Source of the DNA: Flavobacterium sp. | GTDB taxonomy: Bacteria; Bacteroidota; Bacteroidia; Flavobacteriales; Flavobacteriaceae | Direction of reading: 5' to 3' | NCBI GenBank assembly: GCA_014379405.1 | Contig: JACMLU010000027.1 | Coordinates: forward strand, 62,001-126,000 | DNA: 64,000 nt | Notes under the pieces: generated by a model | The model's input: the letters and a program-made list of their open reading frames with translations, nothing else | Told to the model about the DNA's origin: nothing | The model's database searches: none | Shown: positions 51,474 through 51,563 of the stretch, one piece after another | Layout of the letters: every line of letters begins with the position of its first letter | Numbering within the stretch: position 1 is the stretch's first letter | Translations under genes and position numbers: made by a program

Positions 51474-51563
51474 TGTCTTGCAGGCATAAAATAGTAGTTT
51501 GCAGACATCTTCACTTGGTTCGCATACTAAAATTGTAGTCCTAACTTTAATCTCATACTTTTG
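51474..51563 (+). promoter_or_regulatory. Family-3 triple-iteron element copy 2
   Basis: TGTCTTGCAGGCATAAAATAG / TAGTTTGCAGACATCTTCACT / TGGTTCGCATACTAAAATTGT, TACTTTTG at 51556. Confidence 0.75.

What the first reader, a model, noticed from the sequence alone, without database searches (positions are those of the whole stretch)
51474..51563. Triple 21-bp iterons, three copies, one upstream of the LytS/LytTR operon: possible autoregulation
Copies at 49492, 51474 and 59804 each contain three consecutive 21-bp units (TGTCTTGnAG.. / TAGTTTGCAGACATCTTC.. / T..TTnGCATA..), with a -7-like box (GA/TA)nTTTTG exactly 38 nt after the third GTT. LytTR regulators bind direct repeats about 21-22 bp apart, and copy 2 precedes the LytS-LytTR pair (51700-53461). 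Copy 1 precedes DoxX/serine hydrolase; copy 3 lies between Cys-rich peptide 2 and the secreted C1 peptidase. Spacing and sequence are observed; LytTR assignment is inference.
Basis: partly seen in the sequence, partly recalled or inferred. Interest (0 to 1): 0.82.

Follow-up and report, generated by a model that had tools for sequence, protein, structure and literature searches.

The report
Triple-repeat operators of a LytTR two-component system
Three near-identical promoter elements in this Flavobacterium-group genome are, on strong comparative evidence, binding sites of the neighbouring sensor kinase/LytTR regulator pair, which probably switches on its own operon and nearby cell-envelope genes; the pairing of site and regulator is conserved across several families of the phylum.

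Summary
Three copies (49492, 51474, 59804) of a 3 x 21-bp direct repeat sit at fixed distance from a Bacteroidota promoter: -33 TTG at +14 and a -7 box (G/T)AnnTTTG at +37 from the start of unit 3. The genome holds only these three.

Orthologues of the LytS-LytTR pair in 11 other Flavobacterium genomes carry the same repeat as a 2-unit site before lytS, and a further site, usually 3-unit, just after lytTR. Sites with at most 1 mismatch occur in 7 of 12 LytS-positive genomes and 0 of 389 LytS-negative ones. Eight of 13 more distant LytS homologues (38-71%, other families) also carry it. Over 43 sites the -7 box is at offset exactly 37 in 40. The AraC and second LytSR rivals are absent from most of these genomes. 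Other LytSR operons have their own 21-bp direct repeats, with different sequences.

Best reading: an autoregulated, probably activating, LytTR regulon. Triple repeats are known for LytTR proteins (RcoM, CoxC), so this is a new member of a known kind. Unusual: the gene behind the lytTR-linked promoter differs between species. One genome (G543) has an orphan site. No binding data exist.

The parts
49492..49550 (+). Operator copy 1, three 21-bp units (unit 2 at 49516, unit 3 at 49537)
49551..49581 (+). Core promoter of copy 1: -33 TTG 49551-49553, -7 box GACTTTTG 49574-49581; doxX ATG 44 nt after the box starts
51474..51532 (+). Operator copy 2, three 21-bp units (unit 2 at 51498, unit 3 at 51519), upstream of lytS-lytTR
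51533..51563 (+). Core promoter of copy 2: -33 TTG 51533-51535, -7 box TACTTTTG 51556-51563
59804..59862 (+). Operator copy 3, three 21-bp units (unit 2 at 59828, unit 3 at 59849)
59863..59893 (+). Core promoter of copy 3: -33 TTG 59863-59865, -7 box GATTTTTG 59886-59893
51607..51671 (+). Position where the orthologues have their 2-unit lytS site; here degenerate, no match to the 2-unit pattern with up to 4 mismatches (functional loss is inferred)
51700..52767 (+). lytS, His_kinase PF06580
52760..53461 (+). lytTR response regulator, PF00072 + PF04397; proposed binder of the three operators
49618..50013 (+). doxX-like gene, proposed target of copy 1; its orthologue also follows the lytTR-linked site in G815 and G689
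50040..51371 (+). serine hydrolase (PF00144), probably co-transcribed with doxX; a hydrolase of the same Pfam family follows the lytTR-linked site in G754 (Pfam) and in G759, G616, G623 (by similarity, 28-35%)
60152..61579 (+). secreted C1-type peptidase, proposed target of copy 3 (239-270 nt downstream); its orthologue follows the lytTR-linked site in G603 directly and in G538 after a small ORF

Best explanation
The three elements are operators of the LytS-LytTR two-component system encoded at 51700-53461. Shown: 21-bp direct repeats at fixed distance from a Bacteroidota sigma-A promoter, and strong, deep co-occurrence of site and regulator. Inferred: LytS senses an unknown signal and phosphorylates the LytTR regulator; regulator monomers sit on successive repeats on one DNA face, with unit 3 at about -49 to -41 just upstream of the -33 TTG, and recruit RNA polymerase. 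This gives positive feedback on lytSR (copy 2) and activation of doxX-hydrolase (copy 1) and possibly the C1 peptidase (copy 3). In relatives the same design is lytSR with a 2-unit site plus a linked, usually 3-unit, promoter just behind lytTR that drives an envelope or secreted protein. In this genome lytSR itself now stands behind a 3-unit site and its ancestral 2-unit site is degenerate.
For: Site-regulator co-occurrence in the genus: at most 1 mismatch in 7/12 LytS+ versus 0/389 LytS- genomes, at most 2 in 9/12 versus 3/389, two of those three being chance matches inside genes. The 2-unit site lies 75-97 nt before the lytS start in the orthologues, and a second site begins 1-52 nt (mostly 31-52) after lytTR. 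It is conserved with LytS in families f122, f80, f74, f20 and f88 (45-71% identity). The -7 box is at offset exactly 37 in 40 of 43 sites (score >=4 of 6); the next best offset has 12. Other regulators do not co-occur. LytSR operons of other subfamilies have subfamily-specific 21-bp direct repeats: 9 of 36 at spacing 21 versus 0-3 at other spacings, 13 of 256 control genes; also the second LytSR pair of this genome. Published LytTR sites are 9-11-nt repeats with 11-13-nt spacers (PMC4847170), lie just upstream of -35 in autoregulatory feedback (PMC6193735) and can be triple: RcoM1, CoxC (PMC11347149).
Against: No binding or expression data. G543, with 100% estimated completeness, has one good 3-unit site and no orthologous LytSR. 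Five distant LytS homologues (38-48%) lack the site. The sampled genomes are related, so the Fisher values overstate independence. Activation rather than repression rests on geometry only. Copy 3 is about 240-270 nt from the C1 peptidase start, with another promoter-like element between. The genus search used a window-derived pattern, and at 3 mismatches 97/389 LytS- genomes also give (mostly chance) matches.
Confidence: 0.86

Rival explanations
1. The sites are bound by an AraC-family regulator (DJ-1/PfpI-AraC at 55094 or AraC at 41488), since AraC half-sites are also commonly about 21 bp apart.
For: AraC genes lie near; a second 21-bp direct repeat, TGTC-N17-TGTC, lies before several cluster genes including 55094. 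G543, the one LytSR-free genome with a site, does have the 55094 orthologue at 90%.
Against: The 55094 orthologue is absent from the other LytS-positive, site-bearing genomes at E 1e-30 (one has a 27% match), and no AraC gene is constant next to the sites. Families outside the genus keep the site in front of lytS. The 41488 orthologue was not searched genome by genome.
Confidence: 0.05
2. The sites belong to the second LytS-LytTR pair (G000:C3:155629-157376; 42% LytTR identity), or both pairs share them.
For: LytS2 is present in G543, which has a site but no LytS1; it is linked to the C1 peptidase in several genomes.
Against: LytS2 is absent from 8 of the 12 LytS1-positive site-bearing genomes and has its own different 21-bp repeat, AATACAAATA-like, upstream. 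Cross-binding in G543 remains possible.
Confidence: 0.06
3. The blocks are only recently duplicated promoter DNA or a small mobile repeat, with no specific regulator.
For: Three similar 127-nt blocks in one cluster.
Against: Similarity is concentrated in units, -33 and -7; orthologues across families keep units and spacing while the rest differs; only lytSR-linked copies exist in relatives apart from G543 and one G671 copy 10 kb away; no Rfam match.
Confidence: 0.03

Closest known systems
E. coli YpdA/YpdB and BtsS/BtsR (LytS/LytTR systems)
   Same: LytS-type kinase plus LytTR response regulator; YpdB binds a direct repeat (GGCATTTCAT twice) within the 9-11 nt repeat, 11-13 nt spacer rule (PMC4847170)
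   Different: Different repeat sequence; three units here; apparent autoregulation and Bacteroidota promoter (-33 TTG, -7 TAnnTTTG)
RcoM1 and CoxC (LytTR one-component regulators of CO oxidation)
   Same: Three consecutive direct repeats at about two helical turns; RcoM1 consensus TTCNNGCA resembles TTCGCA/TTTGCA here (PMC11347149)
   Different: Those have sensor domains in the regulator itself and no kinase; CoxC represses; target genes unrelated
LytTR Regulatory Systems (LRS; HdrRM, BrsRM)
   Same: Positive feedback through direct repeats with about 12-bp spacers located just upstream of -35 (PMC6193735)
   Different: LRS pair a LytTR regulator with a membrane inhibitor; here a histidine kinase and a receiver domain
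AgrA, ComE, VirR type LytTR response regulators
   Same: LytTR domain response regulators acting through paired direct repeats (VirR title quoted; AgrA, ComE from own knowledge)
   Different: Firmicute peptide-signal or virulence systems; other sequences

Membership tests
LytS/LytTR two-component system | LytTR DNA-binding domain (PF04397) behind a receiver (PF00072) | tested here: met
   PF00072 8.1e-18, PF04397 1.1e-14
LytS/LytTR two-component system | Partner kinase with His_kinase PF06580 in the same operon | tested here: met
   PF06580 1.1e-23; genes overlap at 52760-52767
LytS/LytTR two-component system | Operator of 9-11-nt direct repeats with 11-13-nt spacer (period about 21) | tested here: met
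   rule from PMC4847170
LytS/LytTR two-component system | Operator co-occurs with this regulator and not without it | tested here: met
   one exception G543
LytS/LytTR two-component system | Regulator binds the repeats | not testable with these tools
   needs EMSA or footprinting
LytTR Regulatory System (LRS) | LytTR regulator with a membrane inhibitor protein in place of a kinase | tested here: not met
   partner is a His_kinase and the regulator has a receiver domain
RcoM/CoxC triple-repeat LytTR regulators | Three direct repeats at 18-21 bp intervals next to the -35 region | tested here: met
RcoM/CoxC triple-repeat LytTR regulators | Sensory domain fused to the LytTR domain, no kinase | tested here: not met
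AraC-family operator | An AraC gene tracks the sites across genomes | tested here: not met
   (55094 orthologue); 41488 not searched genome by genome

The most novel reading that the evidence does not exclude
The promoter just behind lytTR acts as a regulator-linked slot. The site and its distance to lytTR are kept while the gene behind it is exchanged between species (DoxX-like protein, C1 peptidase, TonB-dependent receptor plus DUF4249 lipoprotein, serine hydrolase, membrane proteins), so that one two-component system is re-wired by swapping cargo behind a fixed operator; in the window's genome the operator has itself been copied to three places.
Probability: 0.35. Interest if true: 0.6.

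Novelty: new member of a known kind. Interest (0 to 1): 0.5.

Why it matters
LytSR pairs are numerous in Flavobacterium (many genomes have 8 or more LytTR matches), and the literature searches made here found no operator defined for any LytTR regulator of the genus. The data give a concrete operator (TTyGCAGA-N13-TTyGCATA, -7 box at +37), a testable autoregulated regulon, and a simple rule (look for a 21-bp direct repeat upstream of lytS) that yields candidate operators for about a quarter of the other LytSR operons sampled.

Tried and rejected
Two whole-genome pattern searches had a wrong spacer length and were void (the window's own genome did not match); redone with corrected patterns, the last one checked locally first. 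A genome-contig scan with a 14-mer returned mostly chance matches. The G005 hit and the G747 and G566 hits lie inside coding sequences. AraC (55094) and second-LytSR assignments were tested by co-occurrence and rejected. Plasmid records hold no relative of the region beyond Chondrinema SDR and LytTR genes. No structured RNA from Rfam. Related LytS regions count more than once in the 9/36 figure: about five or six independent repeat families.

Full report
What is there. Three + strand copies of a three-unit 21-bp direct repeat lie at 49492, 51474 and 59804. The core TAGTTTGCAGACATCTTC is identical in all three, with 0.04 matches expected by chance at up to 3 mismatches, and the whole genome, 3.86 Mb and estimated 86% complete, has no others. 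Aligned on the units the copies read CTTGnAGnCnTAAAA..TAG | TTTGCAGACATCTTCnnnTnn | TTyGCATAnnAAAA | TTG ... -7 box. The -7 box is GACTTTTG, TACTTTTG or GATTTTTG, starting 37 nt after the first T of unit 3. With the published flavobacterial -7 box TAnnTTTG at -12 to -5 (PMC9723704), unit 3 would lie at about -49 to -41, unit 2 would start at -70, unit 1 at -91, and the TTG would be at -35 to -33. This is the layout of an operator directly upstream of the core promoter.

Which genes. Copy 1 lies 44 nt (box start to ATG) before a DoxX_2 gene that is followed by a PF00144 serine hydrolase; copy 2 precedes a His_kinase and a Response_reg+LytTR gene; copy 3 lies 239-270 nt before a Peptidase_C1 protein.

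Comparative test within the genus. LytS (51700) has orthologues in 11 of 400 other genomes of the genus (51-89% identity). Their lytS genes carry a two-unit site, CTTGCAGAC...TTTGAATA or TTTGCAGATG...TTTGCATA, about 90 nt before the start codon. A further site lies just behind lytTR: three-unit in the close orthologues, two clear units in the four distant ones. The gene behind that second site differs: doxX in G815 and G689; C1 peptidase in G603 and, after a small ORF, G538; a CarboxypepD_reg/TonB-plug receptor with a DUF4249 protein in G597, G671, G732 and G543 (Pfam run on the G543 pair, the others by similarity of size and start sequence); a PF00144-type hydrolase in G759, G754, G616 and G623. 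A genus-wide pattern search over 401 genomes finds sites with at most one mismatch in 7 of 12 LytS-positive and 0 of 389 LytS-negative genomes; with at most two, 9 of 12 versus 3 of 389, two of the three being inside genes. The third is G543.

The exception. G543 holds an island syntenic with the window's (SDR 91%, DJ-1/AraC 90%, DUF2147, DUF6010) and one good three-unit site before a TonB-receptor operon, but no LytS1-LytTR1 and no remnant of it near the site. It has the second LytSR pair. Recent loss of the regulator or use of the site by LytTR2 are both possible.

Rivals by co-occurrence. The DJ-1/AraC regulator has a close orthologue only in the window's genome and G543 among the 13 (E 1e-30; G754 has a 27% match). 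LytS2 is in 5 of 13. Only LytS1-LytTR1 is present in 12 of 13.

Beyond the genus. Among 386 genomes of the class, 13 others have a LytS homologue at E 1e-70. Eight of them, in families f122, f80, f74, f20 and f88 and 45-71% identical, carry a TTyGCAGA-N13-TTyGCATA-like site 75-97 nt before lytS; the five without it are 38-48% identical. Over all 43 sites the -7 box scores at least 4 of 6 at offset 37 in 40 sites and at least 5 of 6 in 32; the next best offset has 12 and 8. Exact spacing kept over such divergence is strong evidence for a protein-DNA-polymerase geometry.

A general rule. Upstream of 36 other LytSR operons, direct repeats at spacing 21 occur in 9 (10-mer with at least 9 matches), against 0-3 at every other spacing from 12 to 35, and 13 of 256 control genes (Fisher p = 0.0004). 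The repeat sequences differ by subfamily, e.g. TTTAAACCAAC, GGCTCTAAA, TTTACCGC, and AATACAAATA for the second LytSR pair. Several of the nine are related, so perhaps five or six are independent. This fits LytTR regulators each reading their own repeat at their own operon.

Mechanism. Shown: repeat, spacing, promoter geometry, co-occurrence with the regulator. Inferred: binding by the LytTR product, phosphorylation by LytS, activation and positive feedback. Activation is favoured because the repeats lie upstream of and do not cover the -33/-7 elements, as in LRS promoters (PMC6193735), whereas the repressor CoxC overlaps -35 (PMC11347149). In this genome the ancestral two-unit site before lytS is no longer recognisable, and a three-unit site whose -7 box starts 144 nt before the ATG appears to have taken over; this step is inference.

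Place among known systems. It meets the domain and operator features of LytS/LytTR systems; triple repeats have precedent in RcoM1 and CoxC, and the RcoM1 consensus TTCNNGCA even resembles the units here. It is not an LRS, which lacks a kinase. Hence a new member of a known kind. The least ordinary part is the exchange of the gene behind the lytTR-linked promoter; whether that is adaptive re-wiring or mere neighbourhood turnover is open.

Noticed in passing
47192, 53697, 55014, 57835, 58216 and (variant AGTC) 59986: A second 21-bp direct repeat, TGTC-N17-TGTC, about 30 nt before a TAnnTTTG-like box, upstream of the SDR, DUF2147, DJ-1/AraC, Cys-rich peptide, DJ-1 and C1 peptidase genes; 9 in the window at spacing 21 versus 0-3 at the other spacings tried. 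It also precedes the SDR orthologue in G671, which lacks the DJ-1/AraC gene but has a 41488-like AraC gene nearby, so the 41488 AraC regulator is a candidate binder.
   Followed up: partly
58014-58135 and 59638-59763: Two diverged copies (76% over 123 nt) of a roughly 40-residue Cys-rich peptide with repeated CxC and CxxC motifs, metallothionein-like by eye; a decayed copy seems to lie beside the orphan site of G543.
   Followed up: no
G000:C3:155629-157376 (L166): A second LytS-LytTR pair in the same contig has its own 21-bp direct repeat (AATACAAATA/TTCAAATA type) upstream, clear in the window's genome and G671 and weaker in G597 and G689.
   Followed up: partly
L247, L258, L262, L260, L263, L265, L266, L270, L281: Other LytSR operons with subfamily-specific 21-bp direct repeats upstream: candidate operators for uncharacterised LytTR regulators.
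   Followed up: partly
window 13931-19155 versus L231 15566-19001 and L191 1131-5394: A UmuC-like polymerase and a DnaE-like polymerase (with an XRE regulator in the window and G543) lie close to the lytSR/DJ-1 island in G543 and near lytSR in G671 as well, suggesting a shared mobile or recombining region.
   Followed up: no
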